Source of the DNA: Thermococcus sp. 21S9
Lineage (GTDB): Archaea > Methanobacteriota_B > Thermococci > Thermococcales > Thermococcaceae
Assembly (NCBI RefSeq): GCF_012027635.1
Contig: NZ_SNUS01000001.1
Location: 930,001-994,000, forward strand
DNA length: 64,000 nucleotides
Direction of reading: 5' to 3'
A program made the translations under genes and the position numbers. Positions within the stretch are counted from its first letter, which is position 1, and each line of letters opens with the position of its first letter. Under the pieces are notes generated by a model. The model searched no databases. It had not been told where the DNA came from and was given only the letters and a program-made list of their open reading frames with translations. Shown here piece by piece: positions 11,773 to 50,458 of this stretch.

Positions 11773-14088
11773 TCAGCGCATCCACTTCCTTGCTATCACC
11801 GCGACGATGAGGGCCATGAAGACGGCTCCGGTTAGGGCTTCAAGGGCGCTCAAAGCCTTGAGCCAGCCCGTAGGGTGCATGTCGCCGTAGCCGAGGGTTG
11901 TGAAGGTTACGAGGGAGTAGTAGAGGGCGTTGGCGAAACGGACAACAATGTTTGAAGTTTTAGGAAAGCCGTCAATTAGTTTGCTCCATATTGTGTAGGG
12001 GACGGCGTTTCCAATGATTACGAGCAACGACACACCAATTATACGCTCCCAGCTTGTGCCATAGAGGGATATCCAGTCTCCAAGAACTACTTCTCCAACA
12101 TATCCAAGCAAATACAAGAACTGGAAAGTTGCTATTGAAACGGTTATGATTAAGCTCACAAAAACTATTGGGACAATCGCAACCAACAGCTTTAGGAGTT
12201 CTTTCCAGATGTTCGACGAGTTGAATAGCCACGTGGTCAGCCAGTCTTGGAGATTTAGTAGGTGTCTAACTCCCCATATTGAAGTTGCTTTTTGGACTGC
12301 GGATTCTGAGAGCTTAGATTCCCGGATTTTCCTCTTAGCTCTCATTTCAAGGACGAACATTCTATCGGCTTCGTCACGTTTGCCTTCTTTTTCAAAACTC
12401 AACCTCTGAACGCGAAGGGCTTCTATCATAGCCTGTGGATTTGAGAAACATGAACTGAAAAACTCCCAGAGTTTGGAAAGATTTGTTTCGCTTTTTAGGC
12501 TTCCTAAAAAGTCAGCTCCCTGTCTGAAGTCGCAGTTAGCAAGGCTTAGTTCATCATGAAACTTGGGAGTTGGTTCGCTGGTGTCTGTGTTTTCTTGTTC
12601 AACAAAAACCGCCAATCGTTCAAAGATTGAACCATCAAAGCTCGTTTTTCCTTTGAAAGTTGCTAGGGAGAAATTTACCTCGTTTTTAAATTCAATTCCT
12701 TTGAAATGTGTAGTACCATGAAATATTGCATCCTTAAAGTTAGCCCCTTCTTTAAATATTGTAAAGTTAAAAGATACCTCTTTAAACTCTGCTCTATTAA
12801 ATGAGACATTGCTGTTGAATACAGAATTGGTAATTTCTACTTTTTTTGTAACTTGTGCGTTTGAAAACTTAATCTGTTCACTAAATTTGCATTTATTTAT
12901 TAAAAAATCTTGACATTTTATTCCGGTGAAATCTATACCTGTGTTGAATATGATATTATAAAACAGTGCTTTTGTGAATTTAGCATTCCTGAAAAATACA
13001 CAGGTATCATAGAGCATTATCAATGTTTGTGATTCGTACAGATTTTCAATGTCTTCTCTTTTATCAAAGTTCTCAAGAACATCTTTTAGTGTATCTCCAC
13101 AGAGGATTAAATTATCCACGAGGTCATACCCTTGTAAGTATTCTCTGATGCTTCTAGTAAACTCCAAAGGTGATGTAAATACCAAATTAAGAAACTTAGC
13201 ACTATCAAACACACCATTATTAAAAAGTGTAATCCCTACAAACGTACATTCTACAAATTTAACCTCTCTAAAGGTGCTATTCCAGAAAAAGATTATTGTC
13301 GGTGTTTTTTCCGTTCCAAATTGGCAATATTCAAAGTTTCCCTTATTCATTTCTACAAAATTAAAGTGAGCTCCACTGAGGAATGTTATTTTTTCGAATT
13401 TGACATGGTCAAAGTTGGCACAGCAAAATATCGCATCGTCCGTAAATATTGTTTTAAAAAATACTACTTCAGCATTAAAAGAGGTTTCACAAAAAATTGC
13501 TTTTCCATGAAATTGGGTTTCTATGAACAAAACTACCGTATTTCCGGTATCTATCTCCAAATCTTCTAAACTTATGTTCATCATCCATGCAGCTAGTTCA
13601 GGATGAGTGGATAATAACTTTTGGATTTGGTCTAATTTAAATTTAGAATTGAATACTGAGGCTTTGAACTCAACATCTGCTTTAAAGCATGTCTTATTAA
13701 ATACAACACTACTATTGAAGATACTCTTTTTGAATGATATCCATCCTTCAAATGTCACGTGAGAAAAGTTTACATAATTCTTAAACACTGTGTTCTCAAA
13801 CGTAAATTTTTGATTCCACTCATTGCCTTCTTCATCTATGTATTTGATAGGCACATCAGGAACCTCGGGAAATACATACCCCCTTGCATCTACAGCCTCC
13901 TCAAAAACCAGCCTCTTTATCTTCCTTCCGCCAACTTCAATCTCCTCAACCCTCGGCTTAAACCGCTCCAGAAACTTCCTGTAAAACTCCCTCGCCTCTT
14001 CCTCACTCTTTTTCGGCTTGTGAAAAATGCAGTACTCTTGGTTGGCAGTTTCAGGGTCGCAGTTCCCAAAATCTTCCCTCTTACACAT
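11773..14088 (-). CDS. Pentapeptide-type repeat protein fused to a two-helix potassium-channel pore
   Basis: The 771-residue protein has three parts. Residues 1-45 hold CKREDFGNCDPETANQEYC and a nearby His, a possible metal-binding finger. Residues 80-530 are a long run of pentapeptide-like repeats with a phenylalanine about every five residues (F-x-x-A/C/V-x-F), expected to form a right-handed beta-helix. Residues 615-771 contain membrane helices and the ion-channel pore sequence TTLGYGDMHPTGW, close to the TVGYGD selectivity filter. It should sit in the membrane with the beta-helix in the cytoplasm as a sensor or gate, but ligand and role are unknown. The repeat portion is A+T-rich whereas both ends match the chromosome, suggesting repeat expansion or an acquired segment. 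Confidence 0.75.
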   Translation of the reverse strand: MCKREDFGNCDPETANQEYCIFHKPKKSEEEAREFYRKFLERFKPRVEEIEVGGRKIKRLVFEEAVDARGYVFPEVPDVPIKYIDEEGNEWNQKFTFENTVFKNYVNFSHVTFEGWISFKKSIFNSSVVFNKTCFKADVEFKASVFNSKFKLDQIQKLLSTHPELAAWMMNISLEDLEIDTGNTVVLFIETQFHGKAIFCETSFNAEVVFFKTIFTDDAIFCCANFDHVKFEKITFLSGAHFNFVEMNKGNFEYCQFGTEKTPTIIFFWNSTFREVKFVECTFVGITLFNNGVFDSAKFLNLVFTSPLEFTRSIREYLQGYDLVDNLILCGDTLKDVLENFDKREDIENLYESQTLIMLYDTCVFFRNAKFTKALFYNIIFNTGIDFTGIKCQDFLINKCKFSEQIKFSNAQVTKKVEITNSVFNSNVSFNRAEFKEVSFNFTIFKEGANFKDAIFHGTTHFKGIEFKNEVNFSLATFKGKTSFDGSIFERLAVFVEQENTDTSEPTPKFHDELSLANCDFRQGADFLGSLKSETNLSKLWEFFSSCFSNPQAMIEALRVQRLSFEKEGKRDEADRMFVLEMRAKRKIRESKLSESAVQKATSIWGVRHLLNLQDWLTTWLFNSSNIWKELLKLLVAIVPIVFVSLIITVSIATFQFLYLLGYVGEVVLGDWISLYGTSWERIIGVSLLVIIGNAVPYTIWSKLIDGFPKTSNIVVRFANALYYSLVTFTTLGYGDMHPTGWLKALSALEALTGAVFMALIVAVIARKWMR

Positions 14089-36395: not shown

Positions 36396-37889
36396 TCACC
36401 CTAAACCAATCCCCAAGTCATCTGGAGTGAGCATTTTAATGTTCTTTTCCTTGCACAGCTTCATGGCTTTGTCCGTAAACCCCGACGTTGAGAAAAAGAA
36501 CATCTCCGCTGACCCAAACTCATCTTTTACTTTTTTCAGGAATGCTTCCACATCCCTATATGTTGCGGGCCTCTCCCTCCACTTGACCTCAAGCACGTAA
36601 ATCTTGTCCCCAAACGCAACCCCATCAAATTCAACGTTGCCCCTTCTGTAGCTCTTAAAATCGAGCCCAAATATTTCCCTCATCTTCTCTCTTATCTCGG
36701 CCTCTTTTGCAAGTCCAAGTTCCATCTTTGCCCGAAGGTATTTTTCTTCAAGCTCCTGGATTAACTCTTCCAAAAACTTCTCCCTCTTGAGCTCAAGTTC
36801 CGTAATGCCGAGATACGTCTTTGCAAGCCAGAAACGCATAAGTTTGTCCGCGAAGTAGTACCTCCCCCCCTGCTTTACAATTAGGTCGGTTCTCAAAAGG
36901 AACTTCAGGTAGTTTGACACCTCTCCCGTGGGTTTGTTTAAACGTTTGGCTATGTCCGAAAGCCTCAACCCTTCCTCCTGAGCTAGTATAAGGAGAATCT
37001 GCTTGTGGACTGGTCCCCGGTGTGCTCTAGAAAGGGATTCATTAAAAACATACTCTAAATGCATGTATATATCGCCCTTTTCGGTCAGCAGTTCAGTGAG
37101 AAATGCGTAGTGGACTTCTTTCCGTCTAACTTTTTCAAACCCCTCTCCAATCAAACGTCTGCACACTGCCAGAACGTAAAATGGATGGCCCTGGGTGAGC
37201 TTGTATATCAAATCCAGCGCCGACTGAGCAGACTCAATCCCAGCCTTTTCCAAAGTTGTTTTTGCAAGCGTTATTGTATCCTCTCTTGGCAGACCCCTTA
37301 AGTAAATCCTGCGGAACTGGCCAAAAAAAGGATTCTTCGGTTCTAATATTTCTTCCATCATCCTTACGGCGGAGCCAGAGACGAGGTATGCAATGTTCTT
37401 CTGCTTTTCAGTGACGGCACGCATTGTATCCAAAAATCCTTTGAAATTGAGGACTTCTTGGAATTCGTCGAGAATAAACAAGGCTTTCTGGCCGGTGTTG
37501 GCTAAGATTGCTTCCTGAGCTTCAAACAGAGTCTCAAGAGTGCCCGTTTTAATGGCCTTAACTTCCTTATCAACGTCGAGCTTTGCTGAAAGAATCAGAA
37601 GGTCGTCCCAGTTCAAGAGTTCACTTCTTTCGACAGTTATCCCTAAGGTGTTGGAGAGTTCATACAGGAGCTCTCTTGTGTACGCAAAGATAAATGAATC
37701 TAAGCTTCCAATTCTCTGAAGGTTCAAGTAGGGAATGACTCCTTGGGCTTTCTCCTTGAATTGCAGGAGAAGTTCGGTTTTTCCGATTCTCCTCGGCCCT
37801 ATAACTGCAATGTTAACCCTGTCTCCCCTCTTCAACAGTTCATATGACGACTTCAATATTTGGAGCTCTCTCCTCCTATCAACAAACAT
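36396..37889 (-). CDS. Archaeal AAA-type ATPase with C-terminal DUF234-like domain
   Basis: The 497-residue protein begins MFVDRRRELQILKSSYELL, has Walker A IGPRRIGKTELLLQFK, Walker B ALFILDEFQEVLNF and a sensor segment YLVSGSAVRMM. A winged-helix part follows (LRLSDIAKRLNKPTGEVSNYL), then a C-terminal nuclease-like DUF234 region with EFDGVAFGDKIYVLEVKWRE. These ATPases are very common and variable in Thermococcales; their roles are mostly unknown. The gene is a little richer in A+T than the chromosome and lies next to the integrated island. GGAGG precedes ATG 37889. Confidence 0.85.
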   Translation of the reverse strand: MFVDRRRELQILKSSYELLKRGDRVNIAVIGPRRIGKTELLLQFKEKAQGVIPYLNLQRIGSLDSFIFAYTRELLYELSNTLGITVERSELLNWDDLLILSAKLDVDKEVKAIKTGTLETLFEAQEAILANTGQKALFILDEFQEVLNFKGFLDTMRAVTEKQKNIAYLVSGSAVRMMEEILEPKNPFFGQFRRIYLRGLPREDTITLAKTTLEKAGIESAQSALDLIYKLTQGHPFYVLAVCRRLIGEGFEKVRRKEVHYAFLTELLTEKGDIYMHLEYVFNESLSRAHRGPVHKQILLILAQEEGLRLSDIAKRLNKPTGEVSNYLKFLLRTDLIVKQGGRYYFADKLMRFWLAKTYLGITELELKREKFLEELIQELEEKYLRAKMELGLAKEAEIREKMREIFGLDFKSYRRGNVEFDGVAFGDKIYVLEVKWRERPATYRDVEAFLKKVKDEFGSAEMFFFSTSGFTDKAMKLCKEKNIKMLTPDDLGIGLG

Positions 37890-38137
37890 TGCCTCCACCT
37901 TACAGTTTTATGCATAAAATTGTAATGCATTATGATTTAATACTTTCGGTCGGGCACGGCGACATCGGGGATAATTTGCAAGCTGACTGGAGACACCTTA
38001 CAAAAGCTTATTAACCCTCTTTCATTCACAACTCTCACGGGGTGGGATGACAGGCCCACTTTAACCGATGACATCCACTCCGCTGAAAATGCTCCTTTGG
38101 CCGAAAAAAGGCTTGAGCTGGGAAATTTGAGTTGTGA

Positions 38138-38155
38138 ACCGATGAGGAGTGTCAT
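38138..38155 (+). repeat. Left copy of an 18-bp direct repeat bounding the island (putative att)
   Basis: ACCGATGAGGAGTGTCAT occurs here and again, in the same orientation and with no mismatch, at 50397-50414. The flanking bases differ on both sides of each copy. The pair brackets the A+T-rich island that carries an integrase, as expected of attachment-site repeats left by site-specific integration. Confidence 0.65.
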
Positions 38156-38544
38156 GCGAACCAGCTCGGATTTAGCTCTTCTCGAAGAAAAGAGCATTCT
38201 GCGAGCACTTCTGCACTCATGTAAATCGCGCTGATTGACAGTCACTAGCATTGCAAGACCGCCTAAACTAACGTTATTCTGTAAAATAAAAATTTTACGG
38301 ACATTTCATTTTCAACTCATGTAAACCATATTGTCAAAATATCAGAAACGTATCTACTAAATTATGCAAATAATTTAGGACACTTTTGTAGAGACATAAA
38401 TGCAATGTGATAACAATCTAGATGCACGAGGGTGTCACGATTATCAAGGTCAATATTCTGAGAGTAAGGTTTTAATACAGGTTAGTAATGAGTACAACAC
38501 AAGACAAACACACTGCATAACCAATTTGTACGGAGGTTGATGAA
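38156..38544. other. Gene-free left end of the island
   Basis: About 390 bases with no supported gene. The first hundred bases include the imperfect hairpin AGCTCTTCTCGAAGAAAAGAGC. The rest is strongly A+T-rich and probably holds the promoter of the operon that starts at 38545. GGAGGT at 38532-38537 is the ribosome binding site of the methylase gene. Confidence 0.5.
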
Positions 38545-41049
38545 ATGAGCCTTAGAGAAGAGATACAAAGAGTTCACGATCACTTATATTCAGAAATTGG
38601 AGGCACAAAACCACTTCTCCCTCTAGTCCTGACCTTGCTATATAAACACAAAGAAATAAAAATGCGCGGTTCTAAAAATCCTTTAGAAGAACTAAAAAGA
38701 GAACTTGAAAGATTAGACAAAAATGAAATCAAAAAGACATTAACATCTCTTCTTAACAAGTATTCTAATATCGAGGAGAATCCCTTACTGGGAGAACTAA
38801 TTAGAGAATCAATTGATAATATAGAAGAACTGCCTCCAGCCAAATTAGAGAGAGCCAAAAAGAGGCTCCTGAAGGCAGATGAATTTTTACAGGCTATGGA
38901 TCATGAGGATGACTTCATTGGTATCCTCTTTGAAACACTTGCAACCCACAGCAAAGTATTCGATAAAAAGGAAGGACGATTCTTCACGCCAAAAAACATA
39001 ATTCTTCTGGTAGTTGAAATGATGGCATCTCTACTCGAAAAAGAAAATGCTGACTTCACAAAAATAACAGTTCTAGATCCTTGCTGTGGCTCAGCAAGAT
39101 ATTTGGTGCAATGGGCTAATAGATTAAAGAGAGAAAATCTAATTCCACTTAACAATCTTGGAAATTATTATCCCAGAAATCTGTTCGGAATTGATATCAG
39201 TAGAGACGTTGCAAAATGGGCCACATGGAATATGGTATTCCATGGAGATGGTGCGACAAACATAGAAAACGCTGACTCTCTTAATTATTATGGATATCTT
39301 GTCTATTGGGACCTTATCCAGACAATATTGCGCGAACTACCCGAAAAACTTGAATCCTTAGAAGATATACAACAGGAACACATACAAGAGATGGTTGATT
39401 ATATTAAGAAAAATCTCGAGCTACTAAAGAGATTAACAGAAAATAATGAGATAGACATATCCTCTGAAGAAATCAGAGTTCTGTTTACCGTCTTAAACAA
39501 TCTTGTCCATATTCACCACAAGGTCCACATTGAGGGATGGGATGCAATAGAAGAACTAAGTAAAAGAAAGGACTACCCAAGTCTCTTAGAAATAACTAAG
39601 TTCAAATGGGCAAAACGAAACTCAGAAGTCGTCCAGGGATTCGATGTAATAATTACGAACCCTCCCTTTGGGCGTTCAGGTCAAGATTTAATGGTTACGA
39701 ATCCATACATATTGGCTCAATATAAACTAGCAACACAGAAATGGCTAGGAGACTTAACTCGGGATGAAGTCGAAAATCTCATTAAAAAAGTCTATGGTAT
39801 TAATGCAATAGAATTCTACAAAGAGTGCCTAAAGGAAATTGGAATTGGAGAAATTATGAAAAGATACAAGATAAAATTCAATGACCTCCCAGCAAAATAC
39901 CTCAAATCCCTTGCAAGAAAATATGGCATACCTGAAAAAGGCAGAAAATCCGAAATAGTTTCAAACCTTTCAAAGAAACTCGGCAGGGACTACATTACAG
40001 GGGAAGACATGAGAATATCCATCAATGTACTACCTGACAATTTAATTAAACAGATTGCATATAACATTCTTTACATTACTGAAGGCAACAAAACAAGGAT
40101 AAGTGAAGAACTATTTACGAAATTAAAAGACAAACTGGGAACAGAATGGGTATCTGTGGGAGATGTATATGGGTACGACTACAAACTTGTCCTAAAAGAC
40201 AGCGCCAACGAAGAAACTCATGAAATCTTTTTCTACAATGGAATTTGGATTGAGTTTAACAAAAAGAACATTGAGAAGAAAGTCGTAAGACTCTTGAAAG
40301 AGAATGAGATACCATTTGAAGTCACTTACAGATACTCCTCTGAGCGTGAATCCGGTGAAAGAAAGACCAAAATATATGGAGTGTTTCTTAGGATACCCTC
40401 GACTAAACTAAATGATGCTAAAAACTTGTTATCGGGAATGAAAGATATATACATCCAGGGGTACGGATACATTCCTCTCTTGTTTAGATACGCACTTCCC
40501 AAACAGGTTGTATTTTTAGAAGAATTCTTAAGATTAGTGAAAAACGGAGGTTATGTGTTCACCGTTATTGATACGGGAATTCTTTCCAACAGTGAGGACG
40601 AATACGTCAGAAGATTTCTCTATAGATTTTCAAGAATTCATGCAATAGTGGAGTTTCCGCATAATGCATTTAAGGCCGCAGGAACTTCTGTAAAAACCGC
40701 AGTGATACTCTACCAGAAACTAAAACAGCCTCCTGAAGATTATGAAATCTTCGGAGCACTGCCACAGAACCTCGGCTATGTTCTCAATAAACAGGAAACT
40801 CCGCCTGACCCTGATCATAATGACCTTGGAAAAGTTCTCTGTGACTGGAGACTATACCTTGGCCTTGGAAGAATGTGTGACCCAGCAATATGCTCGGATG
40901 CTGAAATGACAGGAGACGAACGTTGCAAACTATGTGCAGAGTTAGACTCTACCAGGAATGACACAGAGAAGGAAAGGAAATGTTGCCTATGGTATAAATT
41001 GGAACACTGCCCAGTATGGAGAATAAAAATTGAGAAAAGTGACATCTAA
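38545..41049 (+). CDS. Type I-like N6-adenine DNA methyltransferase (HsdM-like) with SAP-like insert and Cys-rich tail
   Basis: The 834-residue protein has the methyltransferase motifs in N6-adenine order: GRFFTPKNI, motif I LDPCCGSARYL near residue 178 and motif IV IITNPPFGRSG near 371. The usual HsdM C-terminal region follows (GGYVFTVIDTGILSN, FKAAGTSVKTAVILYQK). It is much longer than a typical HsdM (about 500). Residues about 445-475 (LKSLARKYGIPEKGRKSEIV) look like a SAP DNA-binding motif, and the last 60 residues contain about ten cysteines that could bind zinc. It is the first gene of a four-gene operon. It probably methylates adenine at sites chosen by the downstream specificity subunit; an HsdR subunit is absent. 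Confidence 0.85.
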   Translation: MSLREEIQRVHDHLYSEIGGTKPLLPLVLTLLYKHKEIKMRGSKNPLEELKRELERLDKNEIKKTLTSLLNKYSNIEENPLLGELIRESIDNIEELPPAKLERAKKRLLKADEFLQAMDHEDDFIGILFETLATHSKVFDKKEGRFFTPKNIILLVVEMMASLLEKENADFTKITVLDPCCGSARYLVQWANRLKRENLIPLNNLGNYYPRNLFGIDISRDVAKWATWNMVFHGDGATNIENADSLNYYGYLVYWDLIQTILRELPEKLESLEDIQQEHIQEMVDYIKKNLELLKRLTENNEIDISSEEIRVLFTVLNNLVHIHHKVHIEGWDAIEELSKRKDYPSLLEITKFKWAKRNSEVVQGFDVIITNPPFGRSGQDLMVTNPYILAQYKLATQKWLGDLTRDEVENLIKKVYGINAIEFYKECLKEIGIGEIMKRYKIKFNDLPAKYLKSLARKYGIPEKGRKSEIVSNLSKKLGRDYITGEDMRISINVLPDNLIKQIAYNILYITEGNKTRISEELFTKLKDKLGTEWVSVGDVYGYDYKLVLKDSANEETHEIFFYNGIWIEFNKKNIEKKVVRLLKENEIPFEVTYRYSSERESGERKTKIYGVFLRIPSTKLNDAKNLLSGMKDIYIQGYGYIPLLFRYALPKQVVFLEEFLRLVKNGGYVFTVIDTGILSNSEDEYVRRFLYRFSRIHAIVEFPHNAFKAAGTSVKTAVILYQKLKQPPEDYEIFGALPQNLGYVLNKQETPPDPDHNDLGKVLCDWRLYLGLGRMCDPAICSDAEMTGDERCKLCAELDSTRNDTEKERKCCLWYKLEHCPVWRIKIEKSDI

Positions 41050-41063
41050 AGGGGGTAAGGAAC

Positions 41064-42491
41064 ATGAAACCTCTTTCTCCAATTTCTGTAATTACCCCCA
41101 TAAGTACGTTCAAGTCATCAAAACGTCTTGACCCATACTCAATGCATCCAAGAAAACTATGGGCAATCAAAAAGATTCATGAGATAGCAAAAAAGAATGG
41201 ATGGGAAATCAAAGAACTTGGACAATTGGTACTAGAACCATTGTATAAATCCTCAGGAACTGCGCGAAGAGTAGATGGCAAGGTCATAGCAGTAAAACCT
41301 GGAGCTCTATCTTCTGATTATGTTGTTGATTTTTCCAAATGTGCACGCGAAACAGATGAGGTATACGAGAAAGGAGGTCCACGAATCCTCAACGATGGGG
41401 ACATACTCTTACTTGCTGATGCTCATGCTGAGGGATACATTGGATACAAGACTTCAATAATCAGAATAAAAGAAAATCAAAAGGCTATAATGCTGGGGCA
41501 CTTAATAAAAGTAAGACCTGACCCTTCGAAAGTTAATCCGTACTACCTTGTTCTGTATTTAAACACAAAACTCGCAAGATACTATCTCAATTATTCTGTC
41601 AGGGGGCAAAGTGTGGGATTATATCCTGAGGACGCTTCTAAGTTGCCAGTACTGATTCCACCAAGAAAAATTCAAGATGAAATTGGGGATAAATTGAAAG
41701 ATGCTATTGATAAAATATTAGAATTCAGGGAAAAACGAGAAGGAATCCCCCTCATATTTAACCAGTATATCCCGCTTTCAAATTCTGAAGTCGCCGAGGA
41801 AAAGATTACAACAACATACACCCTTAAGGAATGCCAACAGGCAAAAAGGCTCGATCCAAAGTACTTTGCACCAAAATTCTTAATATATGAAAATGCATTA
41901 AAACAATCTGGATACCCCCTGTCTCGGTTAAAAGATGTGTCTATAAAAATTCATAGGGGCGTTCGGCCATACTATGTTGATAATGGTCCAATACCAGTCA
42001 TCAAAACAAAAGATGTTAAGGACAACCCCATTAACTGGGAATCAACTCAAAAAACCAATGAAGAATTTTATAAAAATACTCCTCGCGCTAGAGTCCCTAA
42101 GGATGCATTAGTCATTACATCCACCGGTGAAGGTTCTTGGGGTAGGACTTCAGTCAATACTTTAGAGAAAGTCGTTGCAGATGGAGAAATAACGATTGTT
42201 GAGATAGATAAGTTAAAAGTTGATCCTTATTATGTATGTGCATTCTTGTGGACTCACTACGGAAAGAGTCAATATGAGAGATCAGTAAAAGGATCTACAG
42301 GTCAGACCCATTTATACCCATCTGATATTGAGATGATACTAATCCCTCGTCTTCCTAAAGGGCTCGAAGAACAAATTGCAAGAGAAACTCGGGAAGTTTT
42401 TGAGTTGTTTTACACTGCTCAACAATTGAAGAAACTAGCCATGGCAACACTCAACAGATATCTGCACATAGATGATGAGCAATCATGTTAA
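41064..42491 (+). CDS. Type I-like specificity subunit (HsdS-like), two target-recognition domains
   Basis: The 475-residue protein has two halves, each with the HsdS target-recognition pattern. Half one ends YYLNYSVRGQSVGLYPEDAS...LIPPRKIQDEIGDKL. Half two ends YERSVKGSTGQTHLYPSDIEMILIPRL, each followed by a long helix (EIGDKLKDAIDKILEFREKR; EQIARETREVFELFYTAQQL). The helices are the conserved coiled-coil spacers. This subunit reads a bipartite DNA sequence for the methylase. It starts 14 bases after hsdM with GGGGG upstream. Confidence 0.85.
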   Translation: MKPLSPISVITPISTFKSSKRLDPYSMHPRKLWAIKKIHEIAKKNGWEIKELGQLVLEPLYKSSGTARRVDGKVIAVKPGALSSDYVVDFSKCARETDEVYEKGGPRILNDGDILLLADAHAEGYIGYKTSIIRIKENQKAIMLGHLIKVRPDPSKVNPYYLVLYLNTKLARYYLNYSVRGQSVGLYPEDASKLPVLIPPRKIQDEIGDKLKDAIDKILEFREKREGIPLIFNQYIPLSNSEVAEEKITTTYTLKECQQAKRLDPKYFAPKFLIYENALKQSGYPLSRLKDVSIKIHRGVRPYYVDNGPIPVIKTKDVKDNPINWESTQKTNEEFYKNTPRARVPKDALVITSTGEGSWGRTSVNTLEKVVADGEITIVEIDKLKVDPYYVCAFLWTHYGKSQYERSVKGSTGQTHLYPSDIEMILIPRLPKGLEEQIARETREVFELFYTAQQLKKLAMATLNRYLHIDDEQSC

Positions 42492-42505
42492 AGGAGGTTA
42501 AAGAA

Positions 42506-43648
42506 ATGGAGAGAGCGTCAAGTGTAGAAGACGCAATCCGTATTGCGCAGAGGGCTAAAGACCCTCATGTGCTACTCGATCTATACGAAAAATACAAAAC
42601 TGAACCAAAAGTGGTAATGGCTATTGTTGACAATCCAAATTGTCCTGCAGAAATACGGAGTGATTATTTAAAATTTGTTCTTGATAAATTACTGCCTGCA
42701 TATTCCAGAACATTAAAAGACAAAATCCCAGATTGGGATATTATCCTCAATGCAATGGAAAAATGTATTCAGGCATGGAATCCCTCCCGTGTAGTTGCAC
42801 CCATTCCAAAAGTAGAGGAAGATGAAAGGTTACTACGGTTATTTAATGCAATCATGTCTAAGGATTACAAACAAATTATATTGTATGGGCCCCCTGGAAC
42901 TAGTAAAACATACTATGCACGTGGTTTAGCGTTGGCTATCGCTGAGGGAAAAGAAGAGAATGTAGAATTTGTTCAGTTTCACTCATCTTATTCATATGAA
43001 GATTTCATCGAGGCTCTTATGCCTGAGATAAATGATAAAACTGGTAGTATCGAGTTTAAACCAAAGGATAAACTCTTTAAAGAATTCTGTAAACGTGCGA
43101 ACAGACATCCGAACCAAAAGTTTGTACTTATTATTGATGAGATAAACAGAGCTGATTTATCAAAGGTCTTCGGGGAAATATTCTCCGCTCTTGAATATAG
43201 ACAGGAACCCGTAAGATTGCTATATTCAAATGAGCTGTTTGTTATTCCTCAGAATGTCTACATTATTGGAACTATGAATACCATTGACAAATCTGTTGTT
43301 GACTTGGATATTGCATTAATTCGTAGATTCAAATTTTTCAAGATAGAACCTGATGTTAATATTCTTAAGAAGATACTTACCAAGAACAATGTCCCGCTAG
43401 GCTATATAGAAAAAATTGCTAGGGCCTTCGTTGAAATCCAGCGATATTTCCCCTTGGGTCATGCATATTTTAAAGATATCTCCGGGCAAGATGAGAACTC
43501 TATTAAACAGTCACTAATTGAACTATGGAACTACCAACTGGCATTTCTCCTTGAGCAGTATTTTGGTGAACTTGAAAAAGAAAAATATGAGAGAATTAAA
43601 GAGATATACTCCAGCTCCCTCGAGATACCACTAGAAGAACTAAAATAA
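42506..43648 (+). CDS. McrB-like AAA+ NTPase
   Basis: The 380-residue protein has Walker A GPPGTSKT (about 128-135), Walker B LIIDEINRADLSKVFGE (about 208-224) and MNTIDKSVVDLDIALIRRF (about 257-275), which matches the McrB MNTxDRS signature and arginine finger. The first 115 residues are helical with LRV/HEAT-like segments (VVMAIVDNPNCPAEIRSDYL). None of the usual modified-base readers (DUF3578, EVE, ASCH) is recognisable. McrB is a motor NTPase that assembles as a hexamer with McrC. ATG 42506 is chosen because AAGGAGGT lies 7 bases upstream; an ATG at 42485 overlaps hsdS. Confidence 0.88.
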   Translation: MERASSVEDAIRIAQRAKDPHVLLDLYEKYKTEPKVVMAIVDNPNCPAEIRSDYLKFVLDKLLPAYSRTLKDKIPDWDIILNAMEKCIQAWNPSRVVAPIPKVEEDERLLRLFNAIMSKDYKQIILYGPPGTSKTYYARGLALAIAEGKEENVEFVQFHSSYSYEDFIEALMPEINDKTGSIEFKPKDKLFKEFCKRANRHPNQKFVLIIDEINRADLSKVFGEIFSALEYRQEPVRLLYSNELFVIPQNVYIIGTMNTIDKSVVDLDIALIRRFKFFKIEPDVNILKKILTKNNVPLGYIEKIARAFVEIQRYFPLGHAYFKDISGQDENSIKQSLIELWNYQLAFLLEQYFGELEKEKYERIKEIYSSSLEIPLEELK

Positions 43649-43667
43649 CTTGGCCCGGGGAGAGATT

Positions 43668-44996
43668 ATGAAAAAAATTATTGTGAAGGAATGGGATGAG
43701 ACACCGGAGTATATCCCAATATATCAAGGTTTTCCTAGGGAACTGAGAAAATATTTTGAGTTTTCAGATATCAGGCCACGAACTGATGGAAATGGTTTTG
43801 AGGTAAAACTGAAGGCAAAACAGTTTGTGGGTATTTACCCTATTGAAGATACCGTTATTGTCGTTGAACCAAAAATCCCACTAGCTAATTTTCTTTATAT
43901 CCTTTCACGTGCAACTAAATACAAGGTGAACATTAAAGAATTCCAAAAAATTGCAAGTGTAGGGGTAACTGATAAAGAACGGACTAATACGATATTCTCA
44001 TTCTTATTGCATGCTCTCAATGTGGAACTTGAGAATATCAGAAAATTCGGTTTCTTGAAGAGACCTAAATTTACAGATTCAACAGGTGTTATTAAAGGTA
44101 AGGTAATAATAAACAAAACCTTACAAAACTGGGCGAAAGGTCAATTAACAGATATAGCTAGTAAACATTTTGAGTTACAGAAGGATACTCCTGAAAATAG
44201 AGTCATTAAGTTCACTTTAGAACAAATATTAACAGGGGGTGTAGATGATAATAAGTTCGTAGAGGTATTGCCAAAAGAGTTGAAGGATTCTCTGATTCAG
44301 AAATACAAATGGTTTCAGGGTATTCACTTAGGGAATATTCAAAATGACATTAAAGAAGTAGAGAATATAATCCAACATAAAAAAATATCAAAAAGTAGGG
44401 AATATTACTATAGCATTCTAAATATCTGTCTTGTTATACTGTCGTTTATGGAATTTGAATTTGAATCTCAAAAGAGAGTCAAGACAAGAGGATTCTCTGT
44501 AAACATGAACACTGTATTTGAGAAATATGTGGATAGTATCTTGAAAGATATCATTGAGCCCCCATATATAGTAGTAGATAACAATGAATTCAAATCTCAA
44601 GACAAATACAAGGTATTTAGAAAATTATTTGCAGATTCTCAACAGAGAGAGGATAAACGAAATAGCAAATATACTATAAAACCAGACTATATTATTTTTT
44701 ATAAAGAAAATTCGTCGCTTCAACCAAAACTTGTGTTGGATGCCAAATATGAGGAAAATCCAACATCTGATGATTTATATCAGATTATAACATATGCTCT
44801 ACGATTAGGTGTTAGGGAGGCAATGCTAATTCTTCCATCATTTGATGAAGAAAATCATATCGAAACCCAGGTATTCACCAGTCCTCTCCATGAGGGTCTA
44901 AAGATAAACATTAAGATATTAAGATTAAGTCTTCTATCATCCAAGAGATTCGAAGAAACCTTAAAAAATGAAATACACAAAGTGCTCTCAGAGTGA
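43668..44996 (+). CDS. McrC-like nuclease subunit
   Basis: The 442-residue protein follows McrB by 19 bases. The N-terminal half (EWDETPEYIPIYQGFP, VEPKIPLANFLYIL) and the segment KFTDSTGVIKGKVIINKTL are typical of McrC. The C-terminal part has a PD-(D/E)xK nuclease core: TIKPDYIIFYKEN about 335-348 and LVLDAKYEENPTSDDLYQI about 354-372, giving D...D-x-K plus a downstream Gln. It would cut DNA when stimulated by McrB. ATG 43668 is preferred over TTG 43650, with GGGGAGA upstream. Confidence 0.88.
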   Translation: MKKIIVKEWDETPEYIPIYQGFPRELRKYFEFSDIRPRTDGNGFEVKLKAKQFVGIYPIEDTVIVVEPKIPLANFLYILSRATKYKVNIKEFQKIASVGVTDKERTNTIFSFLLHALNVELENIRKFGFLKRPKFTDSTGVIKGKVIINKTLQNWAKGQLTDIASKHFELQKDTPENRVIKFTLEQILTGGVDDNKFVEVLPKELKDSLIQKYKWFQGIHLGNIQNDIKEVENIIQHKKISKSREYYYSILNICLVILSFMEFEFESQKRVKTRGFSVNMNTVFEKYVDSILKDIIEPPYIVVDNNEFKSQDKYKVFRKLFADSQQREDKRNSKYTIKPDYIIFYKENSSLQPKLVLDAKYEENPTSDDLYQIITYALRLGVREAMLILPSFDEENHIETQVFTSPLHEGLKINIKILRLSLLSSKRFEETLKNEIHKVLSE

Positions 44997-45104
44997 TGTT
45001 TGTTTAGCTTTTCTAATAGAGAGAAAAAGGCACGAGGCAACCGCAATCAAAGAACGAAGGCCTCTCCCAAATAATCAACAGAGACTGTAAACTACTTCTC
45101 TCGT

Positions 45105-45656
45105 TCATTCCACATTAGAATAGCCCTCTTCATACCAGTGCGCATAGAATCGAGCCAGAATCAGCAATTTGTCTTGAAATGTGCTCGGACGCGATAGATA
45201 AAATCTTTTACACTTTAGATTTTTGTCAAAACGCAGTGAAACAAGGTATACAGAGAACAGTGCTGAAACAGCGCGAGAGTAGTGGTAGTACAATGTTTTA
45301 CCTGGAATACCAGTGTAATCGTACAATTTTTTAAAAAAGAGTTTGTTCATATATGTCTTACTCCTATTCAATTCGAAAATCGCTCGTAAGTGAATGAGTT
45401 GCTCACTCGAAATCAGATCAAGATTAAAGGCCGCAGTAGAGATTATCTCATGAAAATCAGAGTCACAGATGACTTCCTTCGCCCTGAGTTTTTCTAGCAG
45501 AACTTTCGCGCACTCAACTTCAAAGTCATGAAGAATCTGAGCGCGCTCTTTATTTCTTCCATATTCCCCCTGCGGTGGAATAAACAACTCAATAAAGTCG
45601 TATATGCTCTTCAACTCAAACTCACTATCAACAAGTCGAATTCCTACCTGACCCAT
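45105..45656 (-). CDS. Unknown protein encoded on the island
   Basis: The 183-residue protein (MGQVGIRLVDSEFELKSIYD at the start) is soluble and largely helical. The stretch LYDYTGIPGKTLYYHYSRAVSALFSVYL resembles a helix-turn-helix, but I do not recognise the family. Start choice is uncertain: ATG 45656 has GGTGAG close upstream, while ATG 45674 would suit a leaderless mRNA. It is transcribed towards the end of the McrBC operon. Composition matches the island rather than the chromosome. Confidence 0.55.
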   Translation of the reverse strand: MGQVGIRLVDSEFELKSIYDFIELFIPPQGEYGRNKERAQILHDFEVECAKVLLEKLRAKEVICDSDFHEIISTAAFNLDLISSEQLIHLRAIFELNRSKTYMNKLFFKKLYDYTGIPGKTLYYHYSRAVSALFSVYLVSLRFDKNLKCKRFYLSRPSTFQDKLLILARFYAHWYEEGYSNVE

Positions 45657-45891
45657 TATACTCACCATTTCCATTCTTATTTATGATGTTTTAAATTATG
45701 TCTCAAAAATTGTTAGATGCGACTCTGCGTGAAATGACCTTAATCGTGCAACCTTGATTGTTAGTGGAATATCACGTCATATCTCAAAAATTTTGAGATA
45801 CAGCAGAGCAGAAAACCCAACGAAAACAAAAACTTATCTCAAAAATTTTAAGACATAATAATATACATAAAAGTTAATTAAAAGAAGAAAG

Positions 45892-46317
45892 TCAAAACTC
45901 AGTGAAAACCTCGACAGTGCCGTTGTTGAATATTTTCACGAAGACTCTTCTGTCACAGTTTGAGTGATAGAACACATATTGCCTATACTCGCAATAATCC
46001 TCGCCTTCGAGCGCCTTCTCTGCGAGCTCGATTTCAAAAATGCTGACATCACGATTGAGCATGACACTGAAAAAGTCACGAACAACACTGAAAAACTCTG
46101 TCAAGATTGCATCATCACTCTTCGCTCTAGCAACTTCAGTGACATAAACTACACCATCACCGTCCTTATCGAGTTCGACAATGACATTGTATCCCCTGCT
46201 AGCGAGGTTTGACGCAAAAGACAGCATTTCTTCGAGTGCATCAACCCCATTCTCCTCTACAAACCTCGAGATTGAATCAGGCTCGAAGTTCGCGAACTTC
46301 ACACTTCCCGACACCAT
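45892..46317 (-). CDS. Unknown small acidic protein encoded on the island
   Basis: The 141-residue protein starts MVSGSVKFANFEPDSISRFV. It is acidic and mixed alpha/beta, with a cysteine pair region (EDYCEYRQYVFYHSNCDRR) and no signal peptide. No family is recognised. A GGTG motif just before the start supports ATG 46317. It lies upstream of the gene at 45105 in the same direction, 236 bases away. Confidence 0.55.
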   Translation of the reverse strand: MVSGSVKFANFEPDSISRFVEENGVDALEEMLSFASNLASRGYNVIVELDKDGDGVVYVTEVARAKSDDAILTEFFSVVRDFFSVMLNRDVSIFEIELAEKALEGEDYCEYRQYVFYHSNCDRRVFVKIFNNGTVEVFTEF

Positions 46318-47210
46318 ATGCCGTCACCGTGAGTTTTGTTATCTTGAAAGGTTTAAATTGTTCTACCCACTGGAATGCACAAAAATGTACAAATAGAATC
46401 GTTCTAGGTTCGACACATGCAGAAAACACATTTCGACAATCATAAAACTGTTGTAACTTTGAGTTTCACCAAATCTAAGTTTTACTAATACGATGCATGA
46501 CAATCGTTATACTTTCTCAAAGTAGAAATGTAAAGAATTTTAAATCATTCGTAAAGAATTTGTAACGAATTTTAAATCACGATGCCATCGAGATACTATA
46601 AGTGGTTAAATCGGATTATTCGAAGAATAGAGCAATAAGGAGGGAGATTCGATGAACACTTTGGTGCACAGTTTGCTATAACTGCACTTTCGCGAGTCGA
46701 AAATTTTTCATGATTCATTTTGCGATGATGTGCAATTATAGCAAAATTTTGCTATAACACACTGCTGAAAGAACCGCTCTCGTGTCTGCAATCGCGAAAA
46801 TAAAGGAAAAGAGGGTTTAAATCATTTCGGGTCATGAATGATTTAAATTCTTTACATGATTCTATACACTTGGTATAATATCAGGGAGTAAAATTCAGTT
46901 CAATTCGCGACATTCCGGACAAGTGAAAAATTTTTCAAATAGATGAAAAATAGCAGGTACGAGAAGACTTTATTCAAGAAACAGAGCAGAATCAAGGGAC
47001 CAGAAAAACAATGAAAGGTCCGATTCATGGTTAGTAACATGGGTTGCCGGACATGTACATGTGTGTGCATCGGGGCAGGCGTGCGTGAAATCCTTTTTTC
47101 GGGTAAAAAAGAGATTAGAGAGGCACTTTTTTCATGGGTGTTAGATACTGCATCAATGTCGCGAATACTCATATTATTGCTATTGCCAATAAAAGACTAG
47201 ACAAGGTGAA
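46318..47210. other. Gene-poor, repeat-rich region, candidate replication origin of the element
   Basis: About 890 A+T-rich bases hold several clear symmetries. A 22-bp perfect palindrome lies at 46736-46757 with half-site TTATAGCAAAA. An inverted repeat has 11-bp arms TTTAAATCATT at 46816-46826 and 46837-46847. GTAAAGAATTTTAAATCATT at 46530-46549 recurs almost exactly in inverted form at 46837-46855, and shorter copies (GTAAAGAATTTG; ACGAATTTTAAATCA) follow the first. This clustering next to a replication-protein-like gene suggests an origin or partition site. No protein-coding gene of normal length is supported. Confidence 0.5.
46652..46681 (+). CDS. Nine-codon mini-ORF with a strong ribosome binding site (possible leader peptide)
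   Basis: ATG 46652 is preceded at normal spacing by AAGGAGGGAG (46637-46646), among the strongest ribosome binding sites in the window, and by a TATA-like ACTATAAG at about 46593. The frame encodes MNTLVHSLL and stops at TAA 46679-46681, inside a TTTGCTATAA word that recurs in the nearby palindrome. It could be a leader peptide, a truncated gene, or chance. Confidence 0.3.
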   Translation: MNTLVHSLL

Positions 47211-48719
47211 TCACAACTCAAAATTCAAGGAGTACTTCACAACCTTTCCCTTGCGTTCCGCGCTAACAATGCCAGCGACCACAAGAGCACTCAAATAACG
47301 CTGTACAGTTCTTCTGCTCAGTTTCAGAACGCGAGAAAGTTGTGTAGTAGTCACGTGCCCCCTATCAATGTAGTGGAGTATCCTCGCACTAGTATCATCA
47401 ATCTCGTAATTGAACTCCTCAAGAATGCGCTGTTTAACATAATCAATATCAATCTCATCTTTGAAATCGAGCTCACCAACACGCAAAACCCAAAAGTATG
47501 TTTTACGAATCCTGTATTGTTCAACAATCCCTGCCCTGATGAACTTCTCAAGTCTTCTTCTCACTGTTCTCGATGTTGTGTTAAACAATTCTGCAATGTA
47601 CTTTGTGTCATCAGTATTTATTGATGACTGTGTGAGGTAATCTAGCAGATATTCATCGAGCTCATCACGAATAAGGTCAGAATACATCTCTTTCAACTCA
47701 ACAGAAGTCACAAAGAGAGATTTGACAATAGCATCAGTCGCGTACGCGAGTGATGTTGCATAAGTATCTTCATAAATTAGTGCATCAGAAATTTTAGCAA
47801 GATATACAACACTAGCAAGAAGAGACTTACCCAGCTCAGTCTTCTGCCTAACCTCCTCTAAAGTGTCAGTTTCACCGAAGTATACAGAAATCTCAAGTTT
47901 AGGGTCGTCCCAAAAATCACTCGAATCTTCTTTGAAATTCTTTCTTCTATATGTCTTTATGTGGATTTTAGTCTTATTCAAAACTAAATGAACGCGATAC
48001 AAATACTTAACGTCATCACGCGCGTTCTTCTTACTCTTCCTGTCCCAAATCAGCCTCTCGTAACCCCAGCGCCTGTAAACTAAATCAAGAACTTCGCAAA
48101 CTCTTTTTTCATATCTTCTGTTATATCTCACAAACAGTTCGGTTCTCACAGGTCTGATTTTCGCGATTGAAAAATCAATATCTCTCTTCTTATATTCAAG
48201 AATCATATCGTGCAAAATCTGCAACAACTCAAACGCACGCTCAAACTTGCCCGCCCAGTTCACAGTTATCACTGTTTTTTGAGTTGTATACACTTTAGAA
48301 ATCGTGATAACATTGTTCTCTATACTTTTCCTTTTGCCAGTGGCAAAATCAGTGTCGAGAAATCTTATTATGACGGGTTTATCTTTGTTCAGACTATAAC
48401 GAAACATCATTATCGAGTACTTACGATTAACAAAAACAAACACGCTCTCTTTGTTCTTCTTAACTTTCATCTCACCCGCATACTCCCAATCGCCGAAATT
48501 AACATTTTCCGACTTCCCCGTCACCTTACCTAGCACAAAATAATTATACAAGAAATAAAACAATGCGCTAAACTCGTTAAAAACAAAATCTGAATCAAAC
48601 ACTAACACTAATTGATTTTGATGATAGTACACAGTAACGCTAAACTCATCTGCGCGAAAAGTATTTAAATCATCAGAGTACACACTAACCCCGGGGCGCG
48701 ATACAGTCTGTGCACACAC
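47211..48719 (-). CDS. Large winged-helix DNA-binding protein, putative replication initiator of the element
   Basis: The 502-residue protein has two C-terminal helix-turn-helix or winged-helix modules: YIAELFNTTSRTVRRRLEKF (about 375-394) and VTTTQLSRVLKLSRRTVQRYLSAL (about 455-478). An N-terminal portion of 360 residues matches nothing I recognise. Large proteins of this plan on archaeal plasmids are often replication or copy-control proteins; that is inference from its position beside the repeat-rich region and integrase. GTG 48719 is the start, with AGGTGAT at normal spacing. Confidence 0.6.
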   Translation of the reverse strand: MCAQTVSRPGVSVYSDDLNTFRADEFSVTVYYHQNQLVLVFDSDFVFNEFSALFYFLYNYFVLGKVTGKSENVNFGDWEYAGEMKVKKNKESVFVFVNRKYSIMMFRYSLNKDKPVIIRFLDTDFATGKRKSIENNVITISKVYTTQKTVITVNWAGKFERAFELLQILHDMILEYKKRDIDFSIAKIRPVRTELFVRYNRRYEKRVCEVLDLVYRRWGYERLIWDRKSKKNARDDVKYLYRVHLVLNKTKIHIKTYRRKNFKEDSSDFWDDPKLEISVYFGETDTLEEVRQKTELGKSLLASVVYLAKISDALIYEDTYATSLAYATDAIVKSLFVTSVELKEMYSDLIRDELDEYLLDYLTQSSINTDDTKYIAELFNTTSRTVRRRLEKFIRAGIVEQYRIRKTYFWVLRVGELDFKDEIDIDYVKQRILEEFNYEIDDTSARILHYIDRGHVTTTQLSRVLKLSRRTVQRYLSALVVAGIVSAERKGKVVKYSLNFEL

Positions 48720-48744
48720 AGTGCATCACCTTTTCACAACTTTT

Positions 48745-48921
48745 TTATACGCTCAACTTCTTGATGACAAGTTCACCTCCTCGCCTCTTTTCGACAATAA
48801 CGAGTCTATCGGGTTCAAATTCGCGAATAAAATCGAGAGGGAGGTAAATCATTGCGCGGTTGTCTGACTTGTGCAACACTATTTTGCGTACAACTTTATT
48901 TTCAGCCCTGAGCGGCGTCAT
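48745..48921 (-). CDS. Small AbrB/SpoVT-type DNA-binding protein
   Basis: A 58-residue frame reads MTPLRAENKVVRKIVLHKSD, then NRAMIYLPLDFIREFEPDRL and an ending ELVIKKLSV. The R-K-I, IYLPLDFI and VIVEKR strands are typical of swapped-hairpin AbrB domains. It overlaps the end of the integrase gene by 20 bases and ends 25 bases before the putative replication gene, so the three form an operon. GGTGAC stands upstream of the start. It probably represses the element's genes. Confidence 0.65.
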   Translation of the reverse strand: MTPLRAENKVVRKIVLHKSDNRAMIYLPLDFIREFEPDRLVIVEKRRGGELVIKKLSV

Positions 48922-50161
48922 TTGTTGTCACCATAGTACTGATTGTACTGAAAGGTTTAAATGGTAAATTTGTGTAATACTTTTCAAAAATGTCCCAAAC
49001 TTCACTTCTATATATGTTATAGGCTATCACGGGGTAGTGCGCGAAATAGTCGATTTGCAACATCTTCTCGAAGGAATAGTAGTTCATCTCTTGTATCTTC
49101 TCAATTGCTGATTGTTTGAGCTCGGTCAGAGTCTCTTTGACAAAATCGGGCACAGTGGGCGCGATAAAATCGTAATACGTCTCTTTCTGCTCTTTTAGCA
49201 GATAGTTGTTCACTGTTATCGCGTATGACCTCTCGTCCGCGTGACCCAACAAGTATTCTCTGTTCTGCGCGAGAACGAGAAATGTGGCGTTCATTGCGCG
49301 AACGGGACGCAGTTTCAACTGCACGTACTTTTTAAACATTTTATCGACATTGCGCATTCTCACGAGCGAGTCGCTCTTCTTTAAATTGTATTTCTTGATA
49401 TAATACCTCAGCCAACTGGCTAATATGGGGTGGAGCGGGAATATTGTGACTTTATCTGTGACGAGTTTATCTCTGTAAAATTCGATGAAGTTGTTCTTGA
49501 AATCGATGTTTTGCACTTTCACGCGCGAGATTTCAGAGCCCCGAGCTCCTGTATATGCCAACACTAAAATCGCAGTGATGAGCCTGTCTTTTGTTTCTTC
49601 GGTCGAGTTGTAGCGATGATAAACTCTATCGATTGCGCGCTGAACGTCCAGCGGAGTCGCCTTCTCTCTGACAGGACTTCTGTAATTATTCGCGCGCCAT
49701 TTGAGCCCCTTACCGCCGTAAATACTTCTTAATTTGAATTCATAATCGATTGTTACTCCGCGTTTCTTCGCGATTCTGTCGAATAGCATTTTTGTATAAA
49801 CAACACACTTCTCGATTGTGCTCTTGCTGTATTGTTTCTTCGCGAGTGTCAAGAAGAAGTCATCGAGTATGTCAGCATTTATCACATACTCGTCCTTGTC
49901 TCCCTGAGTTTCAAGTAGATAGCTCACGAACTTCTTTATTGCGAGTCTGATGTTCTGTATCGTGCTCTCTGCGAGAGCGCCCGCCTCGAACTTTCTTTCA
50001 TTGCGTTCGATGAACTCAGCGATGTCTTCGACTGAGATTGTGATTTCATTGCGTGCTATAATTGTGTTGACGTTCGACTTGACGTTCTTGATTCCGAGTC
50101 TAGTCGCGAGGTCGCTCATTCGGAACATGTTGTTACTTTTTCTCCTCACGCCACCGCTCAT
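48902..50161 (-). CDS. Tyrosine recombinase / integrase of the element
   Basis: The 419-residue protein has a SAM-like N-terminal core-binding domain (ESTIQNIRLAIKKFVSYLLE) and a catalytic domain. The first active-site Arg lies in LAYTGARGSEISRVK, a later box is EYLLGHADERSYAITVNNYLL, and tyrosines follow. Unlike SSV-type integrases it does not contain an att site and is not interrupted. The N-terminal extension of about 80 residues is unusual. ATG 50161 is chosen with GGTGAT upstream. The gene lies about 235 bases inside the right 18-bp repeat, where an integrase is expected. Confidence 0.83.
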   Translation of the reverse strand: MSGGVRRKSNNMFRMSDLATRLGIKNVKSNVNTIIARNEITISVEDIAEFIERNERKFEAGALAESTIQNIRLAIKKFVSYLLETQGDKDEYVINADILDDFFLTLAKKQYSKSTIEKCVVYTKMLFDRIAKKRGVTIDYEFKLRSIYGGKGLKWRANNYRSPVREKATPLDVQRAIDRVYHRYNSTEETKDRLITAILVLAYTGARGSEISRVKVQNIDFKNNFIEFYRDKLVTDKVTIFPLHPILASWLRYYIKKYNLKKSDSLVRMRNVDKMFKKYVQLKLRPVRAMNATFLVLAQNREYLLGHADERSYAITVNNYLLKEQKETYYDFIAPTVPDFVKETLTELKQSAIEKIQEMNYYSFEKMLQIDYFAHYPVIAYNIYRSEVWDIFEKYYTNLPFKPFSTISTMVTTNDAAQG

Positions 50162-50394
50162 TCTCAATCACCGTTCCAATGTGTGTGTCAAAGATTTTAT
50201 AAACTTTAGCAACGATTGTAGTAGTAATATCTAGAACGTTTCTGGTAATTTTTCTTTGCATGCTATATATAATATCTTTTCTTTCGTAAACCGAAAGATT
50301 ATGTAATTCTGTAATTATGTTGTTTGCGTTAAGTTTATAAACTGGGGCCCTTGAATTACAGGTAGAATTTAATTTGGATGTTGTTTGCATGTTA

Positions 50395-50458
50395 CTACCG
50401 ATGAGGAGTGTCATCCCTCCTGATGTCGAGATGATGACATTATCCCCACCCGAGGTGG
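50395..50458 (+). ncRNA. Candidate box C/D sRNA (rRNA/tRNA methylation guide)
   Basis: The order C box ATGAGGA (50401-50407), 12-base guide, D' box CTGA (50420-50423), 7-base spacer, C' box ATGATGA (50431-50437), 12-base guide, D box CCGA (50450-50453) fits an archaeal C/D sRNA, including the standard 12-base spacing of both guides. A terminal stem ACC/GGT (397-399 with 454-456, extendable by two pairs) closes it. C and D boxes deviate from consensus in a compensating way: the U-U pair of the kink-turn becomes G-C. The 18-bp repeat is its 5' part. The 3' stem overlaps the ribosome binding site of the next gene. Targets are not assigned. Confidence 0.5.
50397..50414 (+). repeat. Right copy of the 18-bp direct repeat (putative att)
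   Basis: Identical to 38138-38155. Base composition changes exactly here, from A+T-rich island to chromosomal sequence. The copy coincides with the 5' stem, C box and half of the first guide of the C/D sRNA candidate. Confidence 0.65.

What the first reader, a model, noticed from the sequence alone, without database searches (positions are those of the whole stretch)
38545..44996. Four-gene operon joining Type I-style HsdM and HsdS to McrB and McrC, with no HsdR
The genes are adjacent (gaps of 14 to 19 bases), same-strand and A+T-rich, and lie on one mobile island. HsdM and HsdS normally act with HsdR, and McrBC normally stands alone and attacks modified DNA. Here McrB lacks any recognisable modified-base reader, so target choice may come from HsdS. 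The likely behaviour is a restriction-modification system in which HsdMS marks self DNA and McrBC is the cutting arm. LlaJI-type systems pair methylases with McrBC-like proteins, but I know of none with a two-TRD HsdS in that role.
Basis: partly seen in the sequence, partly recalled or inferred. Interest (0 to 1): 0.75.

Follow-up and report, generated by a model that had tools for sequence, protein, structure and literature searches.

The report
HsdM-HsdS operon with McrBC replacing HsdR
In a heat-loving archaeon, a 12-kb mobile element carries a DNA-defence operon in which the methylating and site-choosing parts of one kind of restriction system are coupled to the GTP-driven cutter of another, and the same four-gene set recurs in four other genomes, which suggests a mix-and-match restriction enzyme whose target can be changed by swapping one module.

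Summary
Window 38545-44996 encodes intact HsdM (834 aa), two-TRD HsdS (475 aa), short McrB (380 aa) and McrC (442 aa) with catalytic motifs intact, spaced 14, 14 and 19 bp; no HsdR in the genome. It is recurrent: the same order occurs in a second Thermococcus-type genome, in two MAG contigs (one labelled Acidilobaceae, one an unplaced 'bacterium') and, diverged with a broken M, in another Thermoproteota genome. None of 39 other McrB loci inspected is flanked by M and S. McrB's first ~91 residues are predicted all-helical and match no modified-base reader. The best new evidence is a natural swap: between two copies M, McrB and McrC are 86-90% identical while both HsdS TRDs are replaced (12-30%), and a third copy shares TRD1 with one and TRD2 with the other. 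So the cutting arm stays constant while specificity changes, as expected if HsdS serves both modification and McrBC cleavage. The operon is cargo of a 12.26-kb element bounded by an 18-bp direct repeat; related genomes have the empty site. McrBC as cutter in modification-blocked systems is known (LlaJI, LlaI, BsuMI, PcaI); with HsdM/HsdS and no HsdR I found no description. Physical targeting of McrBC by HsdS is inferred.

The parts
38138..38155 (.). left copy of the 18-bp direct repeat ACCGATGAGGAGTGTCAT (element end / att-like site)
   Evidence: single copy at the empty site in L152 and L153
38545..41049 (+). HsdM-like N6-adenine (gamma-class) DNA methyltransferase, 834 aa; large insertions between motifs, Cys-rich C-terminus
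   Evidence: Pfam N6_Mtase 3.1e-23; motifs DPCCGS / NPPF; 59-61% identical to M of the three close copies
41064..42491 (+). HsdS-like specificity subunit with two TRDs, 475 aa
   Evidence: Methylase_S 1.5e-13, two stretches; PADLOC Specificity_I 1.6e-30; PDB TteS 3e-17 by profile
42506..43648 (+). short McrB-type GTPase (NxxD class), 380 aa, helical N-terminal ~91 aa without a recognisable reader; ORF opens at 42485 but the RBS favours 42506
43668..44996 (+). McrC-type PD-(D/E)XK nuclease subunit, 442 aa (ORF opens at 43650)
   Evidence: Pfam McrBC 3.3e-22; D340...D358-A-K360
45105..45674 (-). uncharacterised 189-aa protein of the element
   Evidence: no significant Pfam hit
45892..46317 (-). 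uncharacterised 141-aa protein of the element
   Evidence: no significant Pfam hit
47211..48719 (-). 502-aa protein with C-terminal winged-helix domains (putative regulator of the element)
   Evidence: HTH_24 1.9e-9
48902..50167 (-). tyrosine recombinase / XerA-like integrase of the element
   Evidence: NCBIfam recomb_XerA_Arch 1.8e-13 but below its cut-off; Phage_integrase 7e-6, just below cut-off
50397..50414 (.). right copy of the 18-bp direct repeat

Best explanation
A restriction-modification system in which HsdM2-HsdS is the N6-adenine methyltransferase and the only reader of a bipartite target, and McrB-McrC takes the place of HsdR. Proposed working: HsdMS completes methylation at hemimethylated self sites; on fully unmethylated (foreign) sites the HsdMS-DNA complex recruits a McrB hexamer with McrC, probably through McrB's helical N-terminal domain and/or the lineage-specific insertions of M; GTP hydrolysis drives DNA movement, and McrC's PD-(D/E)XK site cuts when complexes stall or meet. 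Shown by sequence: gene set, motifs, recurrence, lack of HsdR and of a known reader domain, TRD exchange with constant M/McrB/McrC, purifying selection. Inferred: one functional unit (about 0.9), McrBC cuts DNA lacking the mark (about 0.75), HsdS physically directs McrBC (about 0.65), GTP-driven movement and collision (by analogy with known McrBC).
For: Same order M-S-McrB-McrC in five loci; 0 of 39 other McrB loci inspected have M and S alongside. The M subfamily is found only with this McrBC: in the 115 genomes of the phylum the next M homologue drops from 661 to 51 bits, in G115 and G116 to about 46 bits. M, McrB and McrC rank the copies in the same order, i.e. they were inherited together. 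Between L063 and L064 M/McrB/McrC are 87/90/86% identical while both TRDs are 12-30%; L061 shares TRD1 with L063 (75-95%) and TRD2 with L064 (about 60-92%). dN/dS about 0.06 (M), 0.04 (McrB), 0.10 (McrC). McrB N-terminal ~91 aa helical, no reader. McrB lies in a clade (86/92) with a McrBC that is adjacent to two DNA methyltransferase genes (L085), apart from E. coli McrB and the other Thermococcales McrBs. Precedents of McrBC-like cutters on unmodified DNA: LlaJI (PMC1459862), PcaI (PMC8989522).
Against: No experiment and no modelled HsdMS-McrBC interface. TRD exchange with a constant McrBC would also be seen if McrBC did not use HsdS at all. Two of the five copies are on short MAG contigs (5.9 and 7.0 kb) and one has a broken M. 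The AlphaFold model rests on four sequences (mean pLDDT 68), and mostly helical winged-helix readers of 6mA exist elsewhere (PMC11037411, abstract). L063 and L064 McrB carry a further ~200-aa N-terminal extension of unknown role.
Confidence: 0.65

Rival explanations
1. Ordinary neighbours: a Type IV McrBC that cuts modified DNA sits next to an orphan HsdMS methyltransferase, kept together as a defence cassette without sharing a target reader.
For: The other Thermococcales McrBC loci inspected lack M-S neighbours; T. gammatolerans McrB reads 6mA with a YTH domain (PMC7680126). In E. coli K-12 mcrBC lies beside hsdRMS.
Against: No recognisable reader in this McrB. M and McrB subfamilies occur only together. 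E. coli's neighbour system keeps HsdR and is separated by symE; here HsdR is missing and gaps are 14-19 bp. McrB groups with a methyltransferase-associated McrBC, not with E. coli McrB.
Confidence: 0.15
2. HsdMS protects self DNA, but McrBC has its own weak or non-specific DNA preference (helical N-terminal domain or McrC) and is merely blocked by HsdMS-made 6mA.
For: LlaJI and, by inference, PcaI cutters carry their own site readers (PMC1459862; PMC8989522); the N-terminal domain here is uncharacterised and a DNA-binding role is not excluded.
Against: In L063 versus L064 both TRDs changed while McrB stayed 90% identical; an independent sequence reader would have to change too.
Confidence: 0.12
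3. A MADS-like or regulatory system in which HsdMS methylation and McrBC act as sensor and abortive effector rather than as classical restriction.
For: The best NCBIfam hits of M and S are MAD2 (1e-31) and MAD5 (9e-28).
Against: Scores are far below the family cut-offs (110 vs 720; 97 vs 400 bits); no other MAD protein is next to it; McrC keeps its nuclease motif.
Confidence: 0.05

Closest known systems
LlaJI restriction-modification system (Lactococcus; H. pylori homologue)
   Same: McrB/McrC-like pair encoded with methyltransferases; acts on unmethylated DNA in vivo (PMC1459862).
   Different: Two methyltransferase genes and no HsdS; R1.LlaJI itself binds the site through its N-terminal half (B3 domain), which this McrB lacks.
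LlaI and BsuMI
   Same: Short McrB homologues (337 and 343 aa) lacking the long N-terminal half of R1.LlaJI, in multi-gene restriction cassettes (PMC1459862): closest precedent for a reader-less McrB.
   Different: Three restriction ORFs and other methyltransferases; no two-TRD HsdS reported in the text read.
PcaI (Pectobacterium)
   Same: Mobile system with a McrBC-like cutter acting on unmethylated CCNGG-type sites (PMC8989522).
   Different: Dcm-type m5C methyltransferase; the cutter has its own, unrelated N-terminal domain; no HsdM/HsdS.
Type I restriction-modification (EcoKI, EcoR124I)
   Same: HsdM and two-TRD HsdS; specificity changes by TRD exchange.
   Different: HsdR (ATP-dependent helicase-nuclease) replaced by McrB (GTPase) plus McrC.
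Type IV McrBC (E. coli K-12, T. gammatolerans)
   Same: McrB AAA+ GTPase with NxxD motif and McrC PD-(D/E)XK nuclease.
   Different: No modified-base reader domain found; constant partners HsdM and HsdS.
'Type 1 1/2' systems such as AhdI
   Same: Separate M and S subunits of Type I style in a system without HsdR (PMC3874165).
   Different: The AhdI enzyme cuts at a fixed position in its site without NTP (own knowledge); here the cutter is an NTPase-nuclease pair.

Membership tests
Type I restriction-modification | HsdM N6-adenine methyltransferase plus two-TRD HsdS | tested here: met
   (sequence level)
Type I restriction-modification | HsdR ATP-dependent translocase-nuclease | tested here: not met
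   No HsdR in the window or genome; the only HSDR_N hit is a stand-alone 287-aa protein
Type IV McrBC | McrB AAA+ GTPase and McrC PD-(D/E)XK nuclease | tested here: met
   (sequence level)
Type IV McrBC | N-terminal modified-base reader (DUF3578/ADAM, EVE, YTH, SRA) | tested here: not met
   Pfam nothing on residues 1-108; all-helical model, pLDDT about 70-87 for residues 11-60
Type IV McrBC | cleaves modified, not unmodified DNA | not testable with these tools
   needs an assay
LlaJI-type | McrBC-like pair in an operon with cognate methyltransferase(s) | tested here: met
   five loci
LlaJI-type | own sequence reader (B3 domain) at the N-terminus of the McrB-like subunit | tested here: not met
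   PMC1459862
LlaJI-type | two methyltransferases without a separate specificity subunit | tested here: not met
   one M plus one S; the two-methyltransferase arrangement is instead seen in L085
MADS | MAD2/MAD5 above curated cut-offs and further MAD genes | tested here: not met
   110 of 720 and 97 of 400 bits; no other MAD gene adjacent
CoCoNuT / NxD McrB branch | NxD signature and coiled-coil fusions | tested here: not met
   NTID = NxxD; 380-aa McrB without room for long coiled coils

The most novel reading that the evidence does not exclude
A separate class of restriction enzyme: a Type I methyltransferase core whose HsdS recruits a reader-less McrBC GTPase-nuclease, so that one exchangeable subunit reprograms both self-marking and GTP-driven cleavage.
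Probability: 0.6. Interest if true: 0.75.

Novelty: new variant of a known kind. Interest (0 to 1): 0.66.

Why it matters
McrBC is normally classed by its reader as modification-dependent. If true it is a reprogrammable, GTP-powered restriction enzyme from hyperthermophiles, and it bears on how modification-blocked and modification-dependent McrBC systems are related.

Tried and rejected
HsdM scan of viral contigs: one weak 25% hit, unrelated. HsdM in plasmids and phages: only short MTase-core matches below 40% identity. McrB in plasmids: 327 records; the six annotated neighbourhoods fetched showed no HsdM or HsdS. McrB in viral contigs: 12 loci, none with an adjacent M (one has a weak S-profile match 4.5 kb upstream of McrB); McrC in viral contigs: none. 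Of Thermoproteota sampled (398, 214 and 81 genomes, overlapping) only G115 and G484 carry the set. In G116's phylum (380 genomes) only G116 (G629 and G795 have other McrBs). The HSDR_N hit in the genome looked like HsdR but is a 287-aa nuclease-only protein. MADS membership rejected on cut-offs. The insertion unique to this M (about 75-88 residues) gave no Pfam family. Model of the L064 McrB N-terminal extension: helical but pLDDT 51, too poor to interpret. LlaJI reference sequence by accession: not held, so LlaJI is not in the tree. SSU rRNA search to place G116: no match. Literature search for HsdM, HsdS, McrB and McrC together: 15 papers hold all four terms; none was seen to describe this arrangement from titles, abstracts and the passages searched.

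Full report
What is there. The window is part of a Thermococcus-type genome (G000, 1.92 Mb, 99.6% complete; the genus name is my inference from gene content and relatives). On the + strand lie four ORFs at 38545-41049, 41064-42491, 42485-43648 and 43650-44996. Strong ribosome-binding sites put the McrB start at 42506 and the McrC start at 43668, so the gaps are 14, 14 and 19 bp. Families: N6_Mtase 3e-23; Methylase_S 1.5e-13 in two stretches; AAA_5 7.6e-18 with best PDB hit E. coli McrB; McrBC (PF10117) 3.3e-22. The S profile matches Type I S subunits 5ybb/3okg (3e-17) and the M profile RM.BsaXI and StySJI M. Catalytic motifs are intact in M (DPCCGS, NPPF), McrB (GPPGTSKT, IIDEINRAD, NTID) and McrC (PD...DAK).

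No HsdR. A search of the whole genome with HSDR_N gives one hit, a stand-alone 287-aa protein about 0.8 Mb away, not an HsdR. G115, G116 and G484 have none; G048 has one in a 340-aa frame far from the operon.

It is an element's cargo. Comparing with the two closest relatives at this locus (G054 92%, G040 88% identical over the right flank) shows the empty site: window 38138-38155 and 50397-50414 are the same 18 bp, ACCGATGAGGAGTGTCAT, present once in each relative. The 12.26-kb insert is 37.8% GC against 54.1% outside and carries, besides the operon, a XerA-like tyrosine recombinase at its right end, a winged-helix protein and two unknown proteins. The integrase is rare: the best relative in 115 genomes is 37% identical (G047).

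Recurrence. The same M-S-McrB-McrC order is found in L061 (G048, single-contig genome, same genus), L063 (MAG labelled Acidilobaceae; M cut by the contig end) and L064 (MAG 'bacterium AUK088'). A fifth, diverged copy is in L086 (G484, Thermoproteota): its S is recognised by PADLOC Specificity_I at 5e-9 and its M is broken over several frames. L063 and L064 are contigs of 5.9 and 7.0 kb, so their host assignment is weak, and an SSU rRNA search could not place G116. Of 39 other McrB loci inspected, none has M and S alongside (Fisher p about 1e-6, which treats loci as independent; some of these contigs are short, and one, L116, has an S gene 3.5 kb beyond McrC without M). Plasmid and viral McrB loci likewise. 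Conversely this M subfamily was met only with McrBC: the next homologues fall from 661 to 51 bits.

Natural specificity swap. In pairwise windows along HsdS L061 and L063 are 58-95% identical through TRD1 and about 18-39% in TRD2; L061 and L064 are 13-35% through TRD1 and about 58-92% in TRD2; L063 and L064 differ in both (12-32% inside the TRDs) although their M, McrB and McrC are 87, 90 and 86% identical. The central and C-terminal helices stay conserved. dN/dS between L063 and L064 is about 0.06 (M), 0.04 (McrB) and 0.10 (McrC), so all three are kept by selection. This is Type I-style TRD exchange. A McrB with its own sequence reader would have to change with the TRDs; it has not.

McrB. 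The AlphaFold model (four sequences, mean pLDDT 68) gives six helices and no strand in residues 1-91, with pLDDT about 70-87 in residues 11-60; Pfam finds nothing there. Foldseek matches only the AAA+ part to known McrBs. The known McrB readers DUF3578, YTH and B3 (PMC7680126) and EVE (PMC7641849) are not helical bundles (own knowledge). In a maximum-likelihood tree of 60 McrB GTPase domains the four close copies form a clade (98/96), joined (86/92) by L086 and by L085, a McrBC adjacent to two N6/N4 methyltransferase genes, apart from E. coli McrB and from the other Thermococcales McrBs. Whether the five HsdMS copies alone form one clade is unresolved (60/29). L063 and L064 McrB have an extra ~200-aa N-terminal extension; the model for it is too poor to interpret.

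How it probably works. HsdM2-HsdS reads a bipartite site and methylates adenine. On fully unmethylated DNA it recruits McrB-McrC, which replaces HsdR, using GTP. Steps shown: genes, motifs, linkage, swaps, element. Steps inferred: the contact, GTP-driven movement, cleavage. The main rival, an unrelated Type IV system beside an orphan methylase, is weakened by the missing reader, the exclusive co-occurrence of the M and McrB subfamilies and the tree.

What is known. McrBC-like cutters in modification-blocked systems are known: LlaJI with a site-binding R1; LlaI and BsuMI with short McrBs of 337 and 343 aa in three-ORF cassettes (PMC1459862); PcaI (PMC8989522). Bell et al. [quoted passage not shown] In the full-text library I found no description of HsdM-HsdS-McrB-McrC without HsdR; most subscription papers are not covered. 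I therefore call it a new variant of a known kind.

Noticed in passing
window 38138-50414: The operon is cargo of a 12.26-kb integrated element with an 18-bp direct repeat and a XerA-like integrase; empty sites are intact in two related genomes (L152, L153).
   Followed up: yes
L085 6253-11919: Thermoproteota genome G235: McrB-McrC directly preceded by two N6/N4 DNA methyltransferase genes, a LlaJI-like arrangement; its McrB lies in the same clade as the window's.
   Followed up: partly
window 38545-41049 (residues about 560-645): This HsdM has an in-frame insertion of about 75-88 residues absent from all other copies, in a region between the methyltransferase motifs; no Pfam family.
   Followed up: partly
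window 6456-8783: A+T-rich gene for a 775-aa TPR protein with a C-terminal CHAT (caspase-like) domain (CHAT 1e-57), standing alone among G+C-rich genes; possibly a defence or stress effector.
   Followed up: partly
window 11773-14088: A+T-rich gene for a 771-aa protein joining pentapeptide repeats (4.8e-32) to a C-terminal ion-channel domain (8.9e-13); unusual fusion.
   Followed up: partly
L064 3755-4450 and L063 3020-3300: McrB of these copies has a ~200-aa N-terminal extension not present in the two Thermococcus copies; no Pfam family, poor model.
   Followed up: partly
window 36396-37898: Archaeal ATPase_2 (AAA) protein with C-terminal Mrr_cat nuclease domain (4.7e-5), just left of the element.
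   Followed up: no
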